In this document: positions 1 through 6,692 of the stretch, piece after piece | Position numbering within the stretch: the first letter of the stretch is position 1 | Layout: each line of letters starts with the position of its first letter | Assembly: GCA_903900025.1 (NCBI GenBank) | Contig: CAIULN010000020.1 | Location: 25,304-89,303 of the forward strand | Source of the DNA: an uncultured Methanomicrobiales archaeon | Lineage (GTDB): Archaea > Halobacteriota > Methanomicrobia > Methanomicrobiales > Methanospirillaceae | DNA length: 64,000 nt | Reading direction: 5' to 3' | The notes under the pieces: generated by a model | The model's database searches: none | Told to the model about the DNA's origin: nothing | Seen by the model: only the letters and a program-made list of their open reading frames with translations | Position numbers and translations under genes: made by a program

Positions 1-324
1 TACACCGGCACACTCGGATATGGTTTTGAGTACTCGTACTCTGCAATCGAACGCATCCGGTTCTCCGCTCTCAAAGGTGATGCCGACCTTGCGATGCCCA
101 TGATCTCTTCTGCAACCGACACACTTACAGTAAAGGAGGTCAGGGAAGCAGATCCAAAATGGCAGGATGAGATAGCTGTACAGTGGGAATTCTATACCGG
201 CATCGCAGCGGCAGTCGCCGGCGCTGAGATCATCTGTGTACGTCATCCAAGGACCATCCCCATGTTGCGGAAGGCTTTCCTGGACCTCAAAACCGGTACT
301 GCAGGTCCCGCGGGGTTGACGTGA
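1..324 (+). CDS. cdhD: Corrinoid iron-sulfur protein small subunit (ACS/CODH delta), 3' part
   Basis: Reading frame 1 is open from the first base of the window to the stop at 322-324, so the gene begins upstream and only about the last 107 residues are seen. They contain the segment GYGFEYSYSAIERIRFSALK, which matches my memory of the C-terminal part of CdhD/AcsD, the TIM-barrel small subunit of the corrinoid iron-sulfur protein (CFeSP). The subunit pairs with CdhE and helps hold the cobamide that carries a methyl group. The stop is one base before the cdhE start, so the two are translationally coupled. Whether the catalytic CODH/ACS subunits lie upstream cannot be seen here. Confidence 0.85.
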   Translation, partial: YTGTLGYGFEYSYSAIERIRFSALKGDADLAMPMISSATDTLTVKEVREADPKWQDEIAVQWEFYTGIAAAVAGAEIICVRHPRTIPMLRKAFLDLKTGTAGPAGLT

Positions 325-325
325 G

Positions 326-1696
326 ATGGCACTCAAGGCACTCGACATTTACAAACTCCTGCCAAAGAAAAACTGCAAGGAGTGTGGCGATCCCACCTGT
401 CTTACCTTTGCCATGAAGCTTGCCGGAGGAAAAGCGGATATTGATCTCTGTCCCTATCTTGACGAACAGGCGAAATCAGTGCTCGGTGCAACGACCCGCC
501 CGCCAATCCGGCTGGTAAGGATGGGGGTTGGAGAACGTTCGTTTGCAGTTGGTGAGGAATTTGTGCTCTACCGTCACGAGAAAACGTTTTACCACCCGCC
601 CGGTATTTTTTTCAAAGTGTCCGATACCCAGTCCGCAGAAGAGATCGCTGCAGTGACAAACCGGGTCAGGGATGAATCGTTTGTCCGTGTCGGTGCAGAT
701 CTCCAGGTCAATGGTATTGCTGTTGAAAACGTCAGCAATTCGAGGGAGACCTATGCAAACGCTGTTGCAACGGTTGAGAAAACGGCCGATCTCCCGCTTG
801 TGCTCATGGGAAAAAACGTTGATGTTCTCACCGCTGCCCTCGTCCACTGTGGGACGTACCGTCCCCTAATCCATGCAGCGACATTAGAAAATTTTAGGGA
901 GATGTATGCACTCGCAAAACAGCATGGCTGTCCTCTCGTGATCAAGGCAAAGGGCCTGGATGAACTCGCCGGTCTTGCCAGAACATGCTCAAATGAAGGG
1001 ATCCGGGATATCATCTTGGACCCTGCACCGCAGTCCCTCCGTGACTTTATCACAACATCAACGTCTGTCCGCCAGCTCGCGATAACTAGAACAGTGCCGG
1101 ATCTCGGGTATCCGGTATTTCTCGATGCCACATTGTCTGCCATGCAGGATGCCGCCGTGGCGCTGGGCATCGTAAAATATGCATCCGTGATCGTTGCTGC
1201 CCCGCTTTCACCGGCGTCCACCAGGGCAGCACTTACGCTTCGCCAGAATATCTATACCGATCCCCAGAAACCGATCCAGATGAACCCCGGCCTGTACCGC
1301 ATCGGCTCACCCGGTAAAGATGCACCGGTGCTCATGACCGTGAACTTTTCCCTCACATTCTTTACCCTTGAAGGGTACCTCGAGGCAACCCGCATCCCCT
1401 GCTTTATGCTGATTGTCGATACGGAGGGATTATCGGTGCTGACCTCAGTTGCGGCGGGAAAACTCAACGAAACACTGGTCAGGGATTCGATGAAAAAATT
1501 CGCTGTAGAAAACGAAGTTTCCCACCGGAACCTGATCATCCCCGGCTATGCGTCACCGCTTTCCGGCAGGATTGAGGAGGCGACCGGCTGGAAGGTACTC
1601 GTCGGGCCGCGCGATGCTGCCGAGATTGGAGATTTTCTACAAAAAGGAGTGGAAAAAGTAGATGCCGACTGTCACGTTCTTCCCGAGTTACCGTAA
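326..1696 (+). CDS. cdhE: Corrinoid iron-sulfur protein large subunit (ACS/CODH gamma)
   Basis: The 456-residue protein is full length for CdhE/AcsC. The N-terminus carries the [4Fe-4S] motif of CFeSP: Cys17, Cys20, Cys25 and Cys42 (NCKECGDPTC, then LCPYL). The cluster reduces cobalt in the bound corrinoid. The middle is the TIM-barrel domain and the C-terminus the Rossmann-like corrinoid-binding domain, with LIIPGYASPLSGRIEEATG near residues 400-420. The protein accepts a methyl group from methyl-tetrahydromethanopterin and passes it on. Its neighbours are cdhD upstream (1-base gap) and a RACo-like activator whose start lies 35 bases inside this gene, which places all three in one operon. 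Confidence 0.95.
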   Translation: MALKALDIYKLLPKKNCKECGDPTCLTFAMKLAGGKADIDLCPYLDEQAKSVLGATTRPPIRLVRMGVGERSFAVGEEFVLYRHEKTFYHPPGIFFKVSDTQSAEEIAAVTNRVRDESFVRVGADLQVNGIAVENVSNSRETYANAVATVEKTADLPLVLMGKNVDVLTAALVHCGTYRPLIHAATLENFREMYALAKQHGCPLVIKAKGLDELAGLARTCSNEGIRDIILDPAPQSLRDFITTSTSVRQLAITRTVPDLGYPVFLDATLSAMQDAAVALGIVKYASVIVAAPLSPASTRAALTLRQNIYTDPQKPIQMNPGLYRIGSPGKDAPVLMTVNFSLTFFTLEGYLEATRIPCFMLIVDTEGLSVLTSVAAGKLNETLVRDSMKKFAVENEVSHRNLIIPGYASPLSGRIEEATGWKVLVGPRDAAEIGDFLQKGVEKVDADCHVLPELP

Positions 1697-3563
1697 GATC
1701 GAGGTTGAATCCGGATGCACCGTACTTGAAGCATCACAGCGGGCCGGGTTTAATGTAAATGTCGTCTGCGGGGGGCAGGGGAAGTGCGGCAAGTGTGTTG
1801 TCTTCATCGTATCAGGCAAAACAGAATTTGACAGTCAGAAATTTTTACGGTTTTTCACATCTGAGGAACTCTCACGGGGTGCCTGTCTTGCATGCCAGAC
1901 AACAGTACAGGGAAATGTGAAGGTCACTATTCCCGACAGCACCCTGATCCAGGAGCAGAAGATCTTAATCGAAGGAACTGAGATCGGGATAGAGTTCCGG
2001 CCTTCAGTGAAAAAATACTATATCGAGCTTTCTGCCCCCACCCTTGCTGACCCGTCACCTGATCTGTCACGACTTCTCTGGGGGATCCAGAAAAGCGGGG
2101 GTCCGGTGGCGGAAAAGATTTACGCTCCCCTCGAGGTGCTTCGCGACATCCCTGCAATCCTGCGCCATAGTAACTGGAAGGTCACTGGCACCATAGCCCT
2201 TGTACCTGGTGGCTACCGTCTCATCGACCTTCAGGAATTTGACACATCGAAAAAGCTGTACGGTGTGGCGGTCGACCTGGGTACTACAACCATCGTTGTA
2301 TACCTCTGGGACCTTGTCAGCGGAAAGGTGCTGGGTGTTGCCTCGAACTACAACCGGCAGATCAGCTGCGGCGAGGATATCCTTGCAAGGGTGAACTTTG
2401 CCCGGAAAAACGGGCTTACAAAACTGCAGGCATTAGCGGTTGATAGTATCAACACCGCAATTACCATGGTTTCAGACGCAACTTCAATCGACCTCGATGA
2501 CATCTACGAGGTTGTGGTCGCGGGAAATACGGTCATGACCCATATGCTACTGGGAATCGACCCCGAGTACATGATTGCCGAACCGTACGTCCCGGTCGTT
2601 CGCCGGGCACTGTCAGTCGCTTCGAACCGGATCGGGATTGCCTGTAACCCCAACAGTGGACTTTTTGCGTTCCCTGCTGTAAGCGACTTTATCGGGGGGG
2701 ATATTATTGCTGACATCCTTGCCTGCGGCATGGGTGAACGGGACGATATTTCGCTTCTCATCGACATTGGAACGAATTTTGAAGTGGTCCTCGGCAACCG
2801 CGAATGGATGTTTTCCTGTGCCGGGGCTGCCGGTCCCGCACTTGAGGGAGGTGAGGTGCTCTATGGCATGCGTGCAAACCCCGGGGCCATTGAAAAGATC
2901 ACGATCGATCCCGGGACACTCAACCCTGTGTATGCCACCATTAATGACATTCAACCAAAGGGGATCTGTGGTTCGGGGCTGATAGACTTTTTAGCCGGAC
3001 TCCTCACCGCCTGTGTCATTGACCGCACAGGCCGCATCAATATGGAAATTAAAAACCCACGGATCCGGCAGGGACGCTTTGGGCCCGAGTTTGTTGTTGC
3101 ATGGGCATCAGAGACGGATATCGGAAAAGATATCGTTATCACACAAAATGATGTCAAGAGCCTGATTATGAGCAAGGCATCGGTTCATGCAGCATGTATC
3201 ACGCTTATGAAAGCTGCCGGCGTGACATGCGATGATATCGCCACCATCTACTTTTCCGGGGCGTTTGGCAACTATATAAACAAAACAAACGCCATCACAA
3301 TAGGTCTGATTCCGGAAATTTCGATCGACCATATTACAAATATTGGAAATGGGGCTGTTACCGGCGCAAATATCGCGTTAATCGACCGTAAGAAACGCAA
3401 GATTCTTGACAATATTGCTACAAAGATCGCCTATATTGAACTGAACGCTGAACCATCATTCATGGATGAATACACGTCCAGCACATTCCTCCCGCATACA
3501 GACCTTTCGCTGTTCCCCCGTGTGCAGAAGATGCTTGACGAATGCCGGCTCCGCAGGAACTGA
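1662..3563 (+). CDS. RACo-like reductive activator of corrinoid protein (2Fe-2S ferredoxin + ASKHA)
   Basis: The 633-residue protein starts with a plant-type [2Fe-2S] ferredoxin domain, with Cys36, Cys42 and Cys45 in VCGGQGKCGKC and the fourth ligand in ACLACQT (75-78). A linker region follows, then a large actin-like ATPase domain from about residue 200, with phosphate-binding loops VAVDLGTTTIVVYLWD, LLIDIGTNFEV and YFSGAFGN. This is the architecture of RACo (AcsV, DUF4445 family), which uses ATP hydrolysis to reduce inactive Co(II) in the corrinoid protein back to Co(I). The start overlaps cdhE and has an AAGGAGTGG-type ribosome site about 10 bases upstream. The gene lies directly between CFeSP and the methionine synthase, so CdhDE is the likely client. 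Confidence 0.9.
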   Translation: MPTVTFFPSYRKIEVESGCTVLEASQRAGFNVNVVCGGQGKCGKCVVFIVSGKTEFDSQKFLRFFTSEELSRGACLACQTTVQGNVKVTIPDSTLIQEQKILIEGTEIGIEFRPSVKKYYIELSAPTLADPSPDLSRLLWGIQKSGGPVAEKIYAPLEVLRDIPAILRHSNWKVTGTIALVPGGYRLIDLQEFDTSKKLYGVAVDLGTTTIVVYLWDLVSGKVLGVASNYNRQISCGEDILARVNFARKNGLTKLQALAVDSINTAITMVSDATSIDLDDIYEVVVAGNTVMTHMLLGIDPEYMIAEPYVPVVRRALSVASNRIGIACNPNSGLFAFPAVSDFIGGDIIADILACGMGERDDISLLIDIGTNFEVVLGNREWMFSCAGAAGPALEGGEVLYGMRANPGAIEKITIDPGTLNPVYATINDIQPKGICGSGLIDFLAGLLTACVIDRTGRINMEIKNPRIRQGRFGPEFVVAWASETDIGKDIVITQNDVKSLIMSKASVHAACITLMKAAGVTCDDIATIYFSGAFGNYINKTNAITIGLIPEISIDHITNIGNGAVTGANIALIDRKKRKILDNIATKIAYIELNAEPSFMDEYTSSTFLPHTDLSLFPRVQKMLDECRLRRN

Positions 3564-3567
3564 TTTT

Positions 3568-4602
3568 ATGGCAAAAATGATCTCATCGCCCCACTCCAGA
3601 GCAACCGGAGTTGGTGCACTCCCCCACACAGATCCGGTGCAGGCATGCTCCGATGTTCTCTCGATTTTTGGTGACTTCCCCTACGTCCCAACGCTCCCGG
3701 ACCATGGACAACTGGAAAGCATCGTCTACAACGATTCGGAACAGCTGCCCGGGAGGATCATGCGTGACGACCGGCTTGTCTTTGACAGCAGTGCTGATAC
3801 CACTGTAGCGATGGAAAAGATCTACGCTGATTACATGGAGGGAAATTTCTCCCCCTATGCACTCCATAAAAAATACGGGTCCGGTTTTATCGAGATGATG
3901 AAGCAGGATCTCTCGATAGCTCCCATCCTCAAATGTCAGGTAACGGGTCCGGTCACATTTGGCATGCAGGTGGTCGATGCCGGCAAACGGCCGATGTATT
4001 ATGACACTCAGCTTGCCGACATGCTCTCCAAGCTGCTTGCACTGCGTGCCCGCTGGTGTGAGATAGAGATGCAGACAAGAACCGGTGTGAAAGAGACGCT
4101 GGTTGTCCTGAATGAACCCTACCTTGCATCATTGGGTTCTTCAGTCGTCCCAATCGACCGCGATTCCGTCAGGTCAGGCTGGCAGGATATCGCTGCCTTC
4201 GTTGACGGGGGACTGGGGATCCATTGCTGCTCGAACACAGACTGGGAATTTGTCATTGGCCTGAACCCCTCCGTTATCTCGATTGATGCCTACACAACAG
4301 CAAAGGAATTTTTGCTGTACAGTGATTCCATCTGCGGGTATCTTGAAGCGGGCGGGGCAGTTGCCTGGGGCATTGTACCTGCTGACTTCCGGGTATTCTC
4401 CCAGGAAACCATCGGTTCACTCTACCGAAGGTATGGTGCAATCCGGGAAGAGATCTGCACCTTGATTCCTGAGTCACTTTTCGACCGGCAGTCCCTGATT
4501 ACCCCGAGCTGCGGGATTAGGTTTGCCGACCGCAACGGGGCAATTGCGATCATGCAGGCAGCTGCAGAAATTTCCTTGCGCATCAGGAAACAGGCGGGGT
4601 GA
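3568..4602 (+). CDS. mesB: MesB/core-MetE-type methionine synthase (folate-independent)
   Basis: The 344-residue protein corresponds to the C-terminal catalytic barrel of cobalamin-independent methionine synthase without the folate-binding half. The zinc/homocysteine site is visible as His219-Cys-Cys221 and Cys315 (TPSCGI). Asp240 in VISIDAYTT sits where MetE has its Glu ligand, and Glu260 is another candidate. The family is known to methylate homocysteine from a methylcorrinoid; in MesB/core-MetE the donor is the corrinoid iron-sulfur protein, and such genes are often beside acsC/acsD, as here. I chose ATG 3568, four bases after the previous stop; a longer reading back to 3466 would sit inside the RACo gene. 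Assignment to MesB rather than MesA/MesC rests mainly on context. Confidence 0.8.
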   Translation: MAKMISSPHSRATGVGALPHTDPVQACSDVLSIFGDFPYVPTLPDHGQLESIVYNDSEQLPGRIMRDDRLVFDSSADTTVAMEKIYADYMEGNFSPYALHKKYGSGFIEMMKQDLSIAPILKCQVTGPVTFGMQVVDAGKRPMYYDTQLADMLSKLLALRARWCEIEMQTRTGVKETLVVLNEPYLASLGSSVVPIDRDSVRSGWQDIAAFVDGGLGIHCCSNTDWEFVIGLNPSVISIDAYTTAKEFLLYSDSICGYLEAGGAVAWGIVPADFRVFSQETIGSLYRRYGAIREEICTLIPESLFDRQSLITPSCGIRFADRNGAIAIMQAAAEISLRIRKQAG

Positions 4603-5371
4603 AACCATCGCAAAACCGTCATTCACGATAGCAATTTCCGGCAAAGGCGGCACGGGAAAGACCACGTTAAGTTCCCTGCTCATCCGCTCCCTGATCGAAG
4701 AGGGGGAAAGACCAATCCTCGCTGTCGATGCAGACCCGAATGCCAACCTCCACGAGGCACTCGGTGTGGAGGTACGTGAAACGCTTGGCAGCATGCGGGA
4801 GGAGGCATTCACAAAAAATATCCCTCCGGGCATGTCCCGCCACGATTATATCAGGTACAGGTTCCGGCAGGCCATCGTTGAATCGGACGGGTTTGATCTC
4901 CTTGCGATGGGACGCCCTGAGGGGAGCGGGTGCTACTGTTTTGCAAACGATCTTCTCTCTGAATCCATGCAGCAGCTCGGGCGTGAGTACCGGTTCATCG
5001 TCATCGATACCGAGGCAGGCATGGAACACATCAGCCGTGGGACAATCGGGAGACCGGATGTCCTGCTCATCGTCAGCGACCCGGGTGCACGGGGGTTGCG
5101 CACCGTCATTCGGATCCGGGCAATCGCCATTTCGCTCGGACTCGGTGAAGAGAAGATCCACGTGGTCTTCAATCGCTTTAAAACCGGCGCGGCACAGGTG
5201 GACATCGGCAAGCAGGTCCCGTTTGCCATAATTCCTGAAGACCCTGCAGTTGAAGCAGCAGACCTTGCTGCGATACCGGTCGCACAGATCCCACCTGACA
5301 GTCCGGCGCGGGTTGCAGTGCGGGAACTTGCAGTGAAGCTGGCGGGCATGGCAGAACGCAGGGAGACCTGA
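4523..5371 (+). CDS. cooC: CooC/AcsF-like nickel-maturation ATPase
   Basis: This is a MinD/CooC-type P-loop ATPase with the deviant Walker A ISGKGGTGKTT, a DADPNANLHEALG switch, and a paired cysteine motif in EGSGCYCFAND that CooC proteins use at the dimer interface for metal binding. CooC/AcsF proteins insert nickel into CODH or ACS. Recognisable homology begins near base 4616; the only ATG in frame upstream is 4523, which would overlap mesB by 80 bases. A TTG at 4544 is the other standard start, so the true start is uncertain. Being last in a CFeSP operon suggests either that CODH/ACS genes lie upstream or that the ATPase now serves another metalloprotein. Confidence 0.85.
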   Translation: MPTATGQLRSCRQLQKFPCASGNRRGETIAKPSFTIAISGKGGTGKTTLSSLLIRSLIEEGERPILAVDADPNANLHEALGVEVRETLGSMREEAFTKNIPPGMSRHDYIRYRFRQAIVESDGFDLLAMGRPEGSGCYCFANDLLSESMQQLGREYRFIVIDTEAGMEHISRGTIGRPDVLLIVSDPGARGLRTVIRIRAIAISLGLGEEKIHVVFNRFKTGAAQVDIGKQVPFAIIPEDPAVEAADLAAIPVAQIPPDSPARVAVRELAVKLAGMAERRET

Positions 5372-5820: not shown

Positions 5821-6363
5821 TTATAAAAATACCGCAACAGCAATAACCGTCGTCCAGAGCCCGCTCTTGTCGCCTTCCGCGGACTGGCACACGTGTTTTG
5901 TCTTGATGATCTTTCCACTCGCCTTGTAGATCTGCTCACGGTCTGACCAGGCCGCGTTCAGGTCGAATTCAATTCCTAGCGTTGTGGCAAGCATCGTTGC
6001 CGCAAGGTCTTCTGCATATTCACCAGTCTTCTCTTTTGTTTCACCGTAGGCATGATGTTCGGAGAGGTACCCGTACTCCTCCGCTTCCTTGGGAAGGGCC
6101 AGGCCGATTGCCGCGGATACCAGCCGGTTGGGTTCGTTCGTCTCGTTGCGTGCCATGACGCAGTACGTGATCCCGCCAGATTTCAGAGACTCCAATCCCT
6201 GTGCAGTGGATATCTCTTTGCAGTTGGGTGGAAAGATGCTGGACACATACACAAGATTACAACGCTCGATTCCGGCTTTGCGTAACGCAAGTTCAAAAGA
6301 GGCAAGACGGTCTTTGTGGATTCCCACACCTTTGGTGAAGAAGATCCTTGTTGGAACGAACAT
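5821..6363 (-). CDS. pdaD: Pyruvoyl-dependent arginine decarboxylase
   Basis: The 180-residue proenzyme belongs to the archaeal PvlArgDC family. The self-cleavage site is visible as Ser41-Ser42 in YVSSIFPP; cleavage between the serines yields beta and alpha chains and turns Ser42 into the pyruvoyl cofactor. [19 protein letters not shown] and [12 protein letters not shown] are family blocks. The product, agmatine, feeds polyamine synthesis and the agmatidine modification of tRNA-Ile2 in archaea. I chose ATG 6363 because homology starts at [12 protein letters not shown]; the frame stays open a further 34 codons upstream into A/T-rich DNA without similarity. The gene is apparently monocistronic. 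Confidence 0.93.
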
Positions 6364-6692
6364 GATCTTTAATGTATCCTCTTTTTTTATTAAGGTTCTT
6401 TTGATAGGTGGTAAATCGCAAATTTTCCAAATTTTTTTTAAGCAACATGGAAAAAAACGTGACATGTAATTCCGATTGAGAAATGAGGAGATTTATTGTA
6501 TTTTTTGTCATTTATCGCTTTAATAATTGTGAATTAAACCCCTTATCATGACCTTCGATGGATGTGATCCTTTCCCATTTGGCGTGTGCATTTCAATCAC
6601 CACCGTCGCAGAAATATATGCCAACGCAGCAGGAGAAGCAATTATGTGGGAAGATTTAACCATGTTCGGACAAAAAAATACATCACTGGACG
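6364..6692. other. Divergent intergenic region, A/T-rich
   Basis: About 330 bases between two divergent genes. The left part (6370-6540) is A/T-rich and holds TATA-like stretches, for example TTAATAAAAA read leftwards about 28 bases before the decarboxylase start. The right part probably holds the leader of the phosphoesterase gene. Open frames in 6548-6690 run into the next gene in other phases and look like chance. No RNA gene was recognised. Confidence 0.45.

What the first reader, a model, noticed from the sequence alone, without database searches (positions are those of the whole stretch)
1..5371. Methionine synthesis from a corrinoid iron-sulfur protein: cdhD-cdhE-RACo-mesB-cooC
Five adjacent + strand genes join CFeSP, its reductive activator, a folate-free methionine synthase core and a metal ATPase, with overlaps or gaps of a few bases. 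The sequence shows the CFeSP cluster cysteines, the RACo [2Fe-2S]/ASKHA layout and a MetE-type HxC...C zinc site. Known families: MesB/core-MetE takes methyl from methyl-CFeSP. Inference: methionine here is made by moving the methyl of methyl-tetrahydromethanopterin through CdhDE, with RACo repairing oxidised cobalt. Few archaeal examples are described. It is open whether CODH/ACS genes lie upstream.
Basis: partly seen in the sequence, partly recalled or inferred. Interest (0 to 1): 0.75.

Follow-up and report, generated by a model that had tools for sequence, protein, structure and literature searches.

The report
Methanogen operon making methionine from acetyl-CoA
In methane-producing archaea related to Methanoregula, six adjacent genes encode an acetyl-CoA synthase, its corrinoid methyl carrier, two helper proteins and a MetE-like methyltransferase but no carbon monoxide dehydrogenase, and together they are predicted to put a methyl group, likely taken from acetyl-CoA, onto homocysteine to make methionine.

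Summary
The genes are real and in the stated order. The contig continues upstream and adds a sixth: acsB-cdhD-cdhE-RACo-mesB-cooC/acsF. AcsB is a full-length, bacterial-style ACS with an intact A-cluster. No CODH gene lies in the operon, and none was found in this 90%-complete genome. The block is complete in 48 of 49 related loci with at least 6.0 kb upstream. In 107 Methanomicrobiales genomes MesB occurs in 50, and full-length ACS in the same 50 only. A complete Methanoregula genome carries, besides this block, a separate canonical cdhABCDE-RACo operon. Five of the 50 MesB genomes, this one included, have no CODH-family match at all; AcsB stays under purifying selection in three close CODH-free genomes. 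So this is an ACS/CFeSP/MesB unit separable from CODH, an archaeal counterpart of the incomplete pathway of Dehalococcoides, probably moving methyl groups from acetyl-CoA to homocysteine. MesB-CFeSP operons in methanogens were already reported (Price 2021); a CODH-free ACS unit I did not find in a few searches. A second methionine synthase (MesA type) is present. Methyl source and acceptor are untested.

The parts
1..324 (+). cdhD (3' part; whole gene 319 aa at L005:9669-10628), short AcsD-like small CFeSP subunit. The gene before it, acsB (676 aa, L005:7629-9659), lies outside the window
326..1696 (+). cdhE, large CFeSP subunit with [4Fe-4S] site
   Evidence: NF003195 559 bits; best solved match bacterial CFeSP 2h9a; four cysteines in 52 of 52 aligned segments
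1662..3563 (+). RACo-type reductive activator of corrinoid protein
   Evidence: four RACo/Fer2 Pfam domains; 3zyy 497 bits
3568..4602 (+). mesB, core-MetE-type methyltransferase, zinc site H219, C221, D240, C315
4607..5371 (+). cooC/acsF-like nickel-type ATPase with CxC; likely ATC start codon
   Evidence: 3kje CooC 70 bits; CxC in 59 of 59 segments; start codon

Best explanation
This is a six-gene block (acsB-cdhD-cdhE-RACo-mesB-acsF) that encodes an acetyl-CoA synthase without carbon monoxide dehydrogenase and is predicted to make methionine with a methyl group likely taken from acetyl-CoA. Proposed steps, all inferred: the AcsF/CooC-like ATPase loads nickel into the ACS A-cluster; ACS splits acetyl-CoA into CoA, CO and a methyl group; CdhDE takes the methyl on Co(I); MesB moves it to zinc-bound homocysteine; RACo reduces cobalt that has slipped to Co(II). 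Shown by sequence: gene content and order, intact metal ligands, conservation of the block, its coupling with MesB across the order, and its occurrence in assemblies where no CODH gene was found.
For: acsB directly upstream, NF040764 919 bits; A-cluster cysteines in 50 of 50 aligned segments. All five genes acsB to mesB in 44 of 44 loci with at least 6.5 kb upstream, 48 of 49 with at least 6.0 kb (exception L021); ATPase next in 57 of 57 with at least 0.8 kb downstream. MesB in 50 of 107 genomes and full-length ACS in the same 50, 49 on one contig 5.2-6.1 kb away; six genomes with only short CdhC have no MesB. No PF03063 match in 5 of those 50 and in 8 of 50 named genomes, hybrid-cluster protein only in 3 more. 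AcsB dN/dS 0.055-0.081 among three CODH-free relatives. Separate canonical operon in a complete Methanoregula genome. No AcsE found in this genome. Precedent: D. mccartyi has AcsB, CFeSP and core-MetE, and its methionine methyl comes from acetate (PMC7005905 passages; PMC7857596 section 8). Acetate is required by Methanospirillum purgamenti (PMC11346949 passages).
Against: A MesA-type methionine synthase is present here (NF002119), and a Meth_synt_2 match in 49 of 50 genomes, so MesB is not the only candidate. PMC7005905 (passage) states that the methionine methyl of methanogens comes from methyl-tetrahydromethanopterin. Acetyl-CoA is a costly methyl donor for a cell that makes methyl-H4MPT for methanogenesis (own reasoning). 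37 of 50 named genomes do have a CdhA or CooS match elsewhere. Two residues at the positions I equate with homocysteine-binding S433 and D599 are A17 and N182. The genome is 90.4% complete and MtrA was missed too. No closed CODH-free genome with the block was shown.
Confidence: 0.45

Rival explanations
1. One reading: CdhDE takes its methyl from methyl-tetrahydromethanopterin and MesB makes methionine; ACS in the same block has a separate job, such as capturing CO into acetyl-CoA.
For: Methanogens make methyl-H4MPT; archaeal CdhDE is said to accept it without a separate methyltransferase (recalled). PMC7005905 (passage) names methyl-H4MPT as source in methanogens. CFeSP and MesB are always together here.
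Against: Leaves the constant presence and purifying selection of ACS without CODH unexplained; CdhD lacks the 80-residue N-terminal part of the canonical archaeal CdhD; no AcsE found in this genome.
Confidence: 0.3
2. The block is an ordinary acetyl-CoA synthesis operon whose CODH is encoded elsewhere; MesB is a side branch.
For: 37 of 50 named genomes with the block have a CdhA and/or CooS match elsewhere.
Against: All 22 genomes with a CdhA match also have a second ACS match, and in the one I read CdhA sits with its own CdhC, CdhD, CdhE and RACo. CODH-family genes are absent from this genome, L007 and L008 and from four genomes at least 95% complete that carry the block.
Confidence: 0.13
3. 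MesB here passes the methyl of CFeSP to a thiol other than homocysteine, for example coenzyme M.
For: A17 and N182 stand where I place MetE S433 and D599 (A in 44 of 65, N in 52 of 67 aligned archaeal segments); MesA already offers a methionine synthase.
Confidence: 0.1

Closest known systems
Incomplete Wood-Ljungdahl pathway of Dehalococcoides mccartyi with core-MetE/MesB (PMC7005905, PMC7857596)
   Same: ACS, CFeSP and MesB without CODH and without a detected AcsE; zinc ligands with the same pattern (H215, C217, D236, C312 there; H219, C221, D240, C315 here)
   Different: Archaeal host with a MesA-type enzyme as well; all parts in one block with RACo and the ATPase; methanogens have methyl-H4MPT, D. 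mccartyi lacks methyl-THF synthesis
MesB next to acsC/acsD in methanogens (Price 2021, PMC7857596)
   Same: Very probably the same kind of locus; MesA plus MesB in some Methanomicrobiales is already stated there
   Different: The text I read names acsC and acsD only and predicts CFeSP as donor; its Fig 3B drawings were not visible to me. It does not discuss ACS without CODH in methanogens in the sections read
Canonical archaeal ACDS operon cdhABCDE (example L094, Methanoregula sp. SKADARSKE-2)
   Same: Homologous ACS core, CFeSP, RACo and CooC-like proteins
   Different: Has CdhA and CdhB, short CdhC (464 aa), long CdhD (409 aa), no mesB; 29-46% identity to the parts here
MesD (3rpd) and MetE
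   Same: Fold and zinc-site type of the methyltransferase
   Different: 13-16% identity in most alignments; MetE has an extra folate domain; MesD is from aerobes and works with MesX

Membership tests
MesB (core methionine synthase) | MetE catalytic domain alone, without the folate-binding N-terminal domain | tested here: met
   344 aa; model over its whole length aligns with MesD and the C-terminal half of MetE
MesB (core methionine synthase) | Zinc ligands H-x-C, D, C | tested here: met
   H219 66 of 66, C221 66 of 66, D240 65 of 65, C315 64 of 64 aligned segments
MesB (core methionine synthase) | Homocysteine-binding S433 and D599 (mostly conserved in MesB) | tested here: inconclusive
   A17 and N182 here, variable among relatives; positions equated by motif, not by superposition
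MesB (core methionine synthase) | At least 130 bits (about 29% identity) to the characterised D. mccartyi protein | not tested
   That sequence was not held; bacterial relatives are 30-34% identical but were not shown to be MesB
MesB (core methionine synthase) | Genome encodes CFeSP | tested here: met
   cdhD and cdhE in the same block
MesB (core methionine synthase) | Methylates homocysteine from a methylcorrinoid | not testable with these tools
   needs enzyme assay
Canonical CODH/ACS (ACDS) | CODH catalytic subunit (CdhA or CooS) | tested here: not met
   0 PF03063 matches in this 90.4% complete genome
Canonical CODH/ACS (ACDS) | CdhB subunit | not tested
   PF02552 was not searched; none noticed among the ORFs read upstream
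Canonical CODH/ACS (ACDS) | ACS with intact A-cluster ligands | tested here: met
   six cysteines
D. mccartyi-type incomplete pathway | ACS, CFeSP and MesB without CODH | tested here: met
   within the limits of the assembly
D. mccartyi-type incomplete pathway | No AcsE | tested here: met
   one PF00809 match, a dihydropteroate synthase; 90.4% complete genome
D. mccartyi-type incomplete pathway | No methyl-pterin synthesis (no MetF) | not tested
   Mer and MetF were not searched; as a methanogen it should have Mer
D. mccartyi-type incomplete pathway | Methionine methyl comes from acetate | not testable with these tools
   needs labelling
CooC/AcsF ATPases | P-loop and CxC metal motif | tested here: met
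CooC/AcsF ATPases | Loads nickel into ACS rather than CODH | not testable with these tools
   inferred from the lack of CODH here

The most novel reading that the evidence does not exclude
Many hydrogenotrophic methanogens of the order Methanomicrobiales carry a second, CODH-free acetyl-CoA synthase that runs backwards: it splits acetyl-CoA, releases CO and delivers the methyl to MesB for methionine. ACS and CFeSP would then be kept in archaea for biosynthesis alone, apart from carbon fixation and methanogenesis.
Probability: 0.4. Interest if true: 0.75.

Novelty: new variant of a known kind. Interest (0 to 1): 0.55.

Why it matters
It separates ACS from CODH in archaea: the ACS/CFeSP/RACo set is retained, and ACS is under selection, in methanogen assemblies where no CODH was found, and always with MesB in the genomes examined. 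A 2024 study of Methanospirillum (PMC11346949, passages read) calls the function of CODH/ACS unclear in strains that need acetate; a biosynthetic ACS that consumes acetyl-CoA would be one answer, if their genes belong to this block (not checked). Reading 'ACS and CFeSP present' as autotrophy by the Wood-Ljungdahl pathway would mislead for such genomes. One labelling experiment would decide the methyl source.

Tried and rejected
MtrA was not found in this genome, which briefly suggested a methanogen without Mtr and a CFeSP-to-CoM bypass. Set aside: PF04208 matches in 42 of 50 genomes, often as tandem pairs or cut at contig ends, also in the close relative G001, so the miss is probably an assembly break.

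AcsE as methyl loader: the one PF00809 match of this genome is a dihydropteroate synthase beside folD and a glyA-like frame. L103 shows a similar stretch (not scanned). 11 of 12 genomes searched have a match; the remaining matches were not typed one by one.

A first MesB model from 15 close sequences was poor (pLDDT 60); 47 sequences gave 94. A sequence-profile search of solved structures with MesB gave only two chance-level matches. No Rfam match at gathering threshold in L005:6000-16001. Labelling literature for Methanospirillum methionine: nine papers listed, none opened for this except PMC9012536, which had no passage on the terms sought. Searches for a CODH-free ACS/MesB unit in print: (open-licence library only). 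PMC2686161 (passages) says that acetyl-CoA decarbonylase/synthase is absent from two of three Methanomicrobiales; PMC11264602 (passages) only notes Wood-Ljungdahl genes.

Errors corrected: the ATPase query was translated in a wrong frame (redone). AcsB was first taken 24 residues too long, which gave false stops and meaningless L008 values (redone). My 6.5 kb cut leaves out L021 (6.2 kb upstream), the one locus that has RACo, mesB and ATPase but no cdhE in the 4.3 kb before RACo; the 48 of 49 count includes it. L004 was fetched but not examined. Genome G033 (about 1.0 Mb, no PF03063 match) was dropped.
Full report
What is there. The window is G000:C20:25304-89303 of a 1.75 Mb assembly, 90.4% complete. 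Its closest named MesB relatives are Methanoregula MAGs. The five genes of the finding are confirmed. The contig goes on for 25 kb upstream; I read the ORFs of C20:15000-25800. Directly before cdhD lies acsB (L005:7629-9659, 676 aa from its likely start), a full-length ACS (NF040764, 919 bits) that scores higher against bacterial ACS structures (653 bits) than against an archaeal CdhC (385 bits). No cdhA or cdhB was seen there. The block reads acsB-cdhD-cdhE-RACo-mesB-cooC/acsF.

Conservation. A scan of GTDB genome contigs found 117 relatives and kept the best 80: 67 Methanomicrobiales-type loci (L007-L073, 50% identity or more) and 13 distant ones at 30-34% (L074-L086, twelve bacterial and one labelled Euryarchaeota). 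Of the 67, 44 have at least 6.5 kb upstream of mesB and all 44 carry acsB, cdhD, cdhE, RACo and mesB on one strand. At 6.0 kb it is 48 of 49; the exception, L021, has RACo-mesB-ATPase without cdhE in the 4.3 kb before RACo. 57 have at least 0.8 kb downstream and all 57 carry the ATPase next. Some have extra DNA between cdhE and RACo (3.1 kb in L072, 1.3 kb in L032). In 107 Methanomicrobiales genomes (106 at least 95% complete, plus G000) MesB is found in 50. Full-length ACS is found in the same 50 (in G099 only as fragments, one at a contig end), within 5.2-6.1 kb on one contig in 49 and on separate contigs in G131. Six genomes have only a short CdhC (458-491 aa open frame), and none of these has MesB. 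Relatedness inflates such counts and I did not correct for it.

Two separate ACS systems. In the complete genome of Methanoregula sp. SKADARSKE-2 a second region holds cooC-cooC-cdhA-cdhB-cdhC-cdhD-cdhE-RACo (L094); its CdhA is TIGR00314 at 1146 bits, and the other names rest on position and on similarity to the mesB-linked proteins, cdhB on position and length alone. Identity between the two sets is 34-46%, for the ATPases 29-33%. 24 of the 50 MesB genomes in the order set have a second, short CdhC (the script printed 25 because it counted the fragments of G099). Among the named genomes, all 22 with a CdhA match have a second ACS match.

CODH. PF03063 (CODH and hybrid-cluster protein) has no match in G000. 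In 50 named genomes with the block, typing matches by alignment span gave: none 8, hybrid-cluster protein only 3, CdhA 17, CdhA plus CooS 5, CooS only 15, fragments only 2. The typing was checked on four hybrid-cluster, two CooS and one CdhA representative. Completeness of these genomes was not given. The close relatives L007 and L008 have none. In the order set 15 of 107 have no match, and five of these carry MesB and ACS: G000 and four at least 95% complete, G139, G154, G084, G101. No closed genome with the block and without CODH was shown. Between this genome, L007 and L008 AcsB has dN/dS 0.055-0.081 (dS 0.9-1.5), and the A-cluster cysteines are present in 50 of 50 aligned segments.

Mechanism. 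Shown: content, order, conservation, intact sites, no CODH found in some hosts. Inferred: ACS cleaves acetyl-CoA, CdhDE carries the methyl, MesB methylates homocysteine, RACo repairs cobalt, the ATPase loads nickel into ACS (AcsF role recalled from bacterial work). The choice of acetyl-CoA over methyl-H4MPT rests on the constant presence of ACS, the short CdhD, the lack of a detected AcsE and the Dehalococcoides precedent. Against it stand the cost, the MesA-type enzyme, the ready methyl-H4MPT pool, and the statement in PMC7005905 that methanogens take the methionine methyl from methyl-H4MPT.

Known or new. Price et al. 2021 (PMC7857596; sections 4, 8, 11 and passages read) already report mesB with acsC and acsD in methanogens, CFeSP as predicted donor, and MesA plus MesB in some Methanomicrobiales. 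What I did not find in print (one open-licence library) is the CODH-free, ACS-containing unit beside a separate canonical operon. I file it as a new variant of a known kind.

Noticed in passing
window 4595-4612; L007, L008, L024: The ATPase gene after mesB has ATC where relatives have ATG (also in close relatives L007 and L008; ATA in L024), with a GGGTGAAACC stretch before it in this genome, L007 and L008; L008 has no ATG, GTG or TTG in that frame. A non-standard start codon kept in several species.
   Followed up: partly
G000:C53, L003:1246-2400 (+): HgcA, the mercury-methylation corrinoid protein (NF040863, 445 bits), next to a gene that looks by eye like an arsenite permease.
   Followed up: partly
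G005:C1:364674-366118, G042:C22:3454-4905, others: mtrA occurs as a tandem pair in many of these genomes, and assemblies break there, which probably explains missing MtrA in this genome.
   Followed up: no
G000:C38, L104:584-2256 (+): Folate-type genes in a methanogen: folD (NF010775) beside a dihydropteroate synthase (TIGR01496), with a glyA-like frame before them; a similar stretch in L103.
   Followed up: partly
G000:C42, L006:1480-2382 (-): MesA-type methionine synthase candidate, 300 aa (NF002119, 392 bits), the second methionine synthase of this genome.
   Followed up: yes
window 5821-6465 (-): Next gene downstream, on the other strand, looks by eye like a pyruvoyl-dependent arginine decarboxylase; not scanned.
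   Followed up: no
L072:3036-6093, L032:4749-6093: 3.1 kb and 1.3 kb of extra DNA between cdhE and RACo in two otherwise intact blocks.
   Followed up: no
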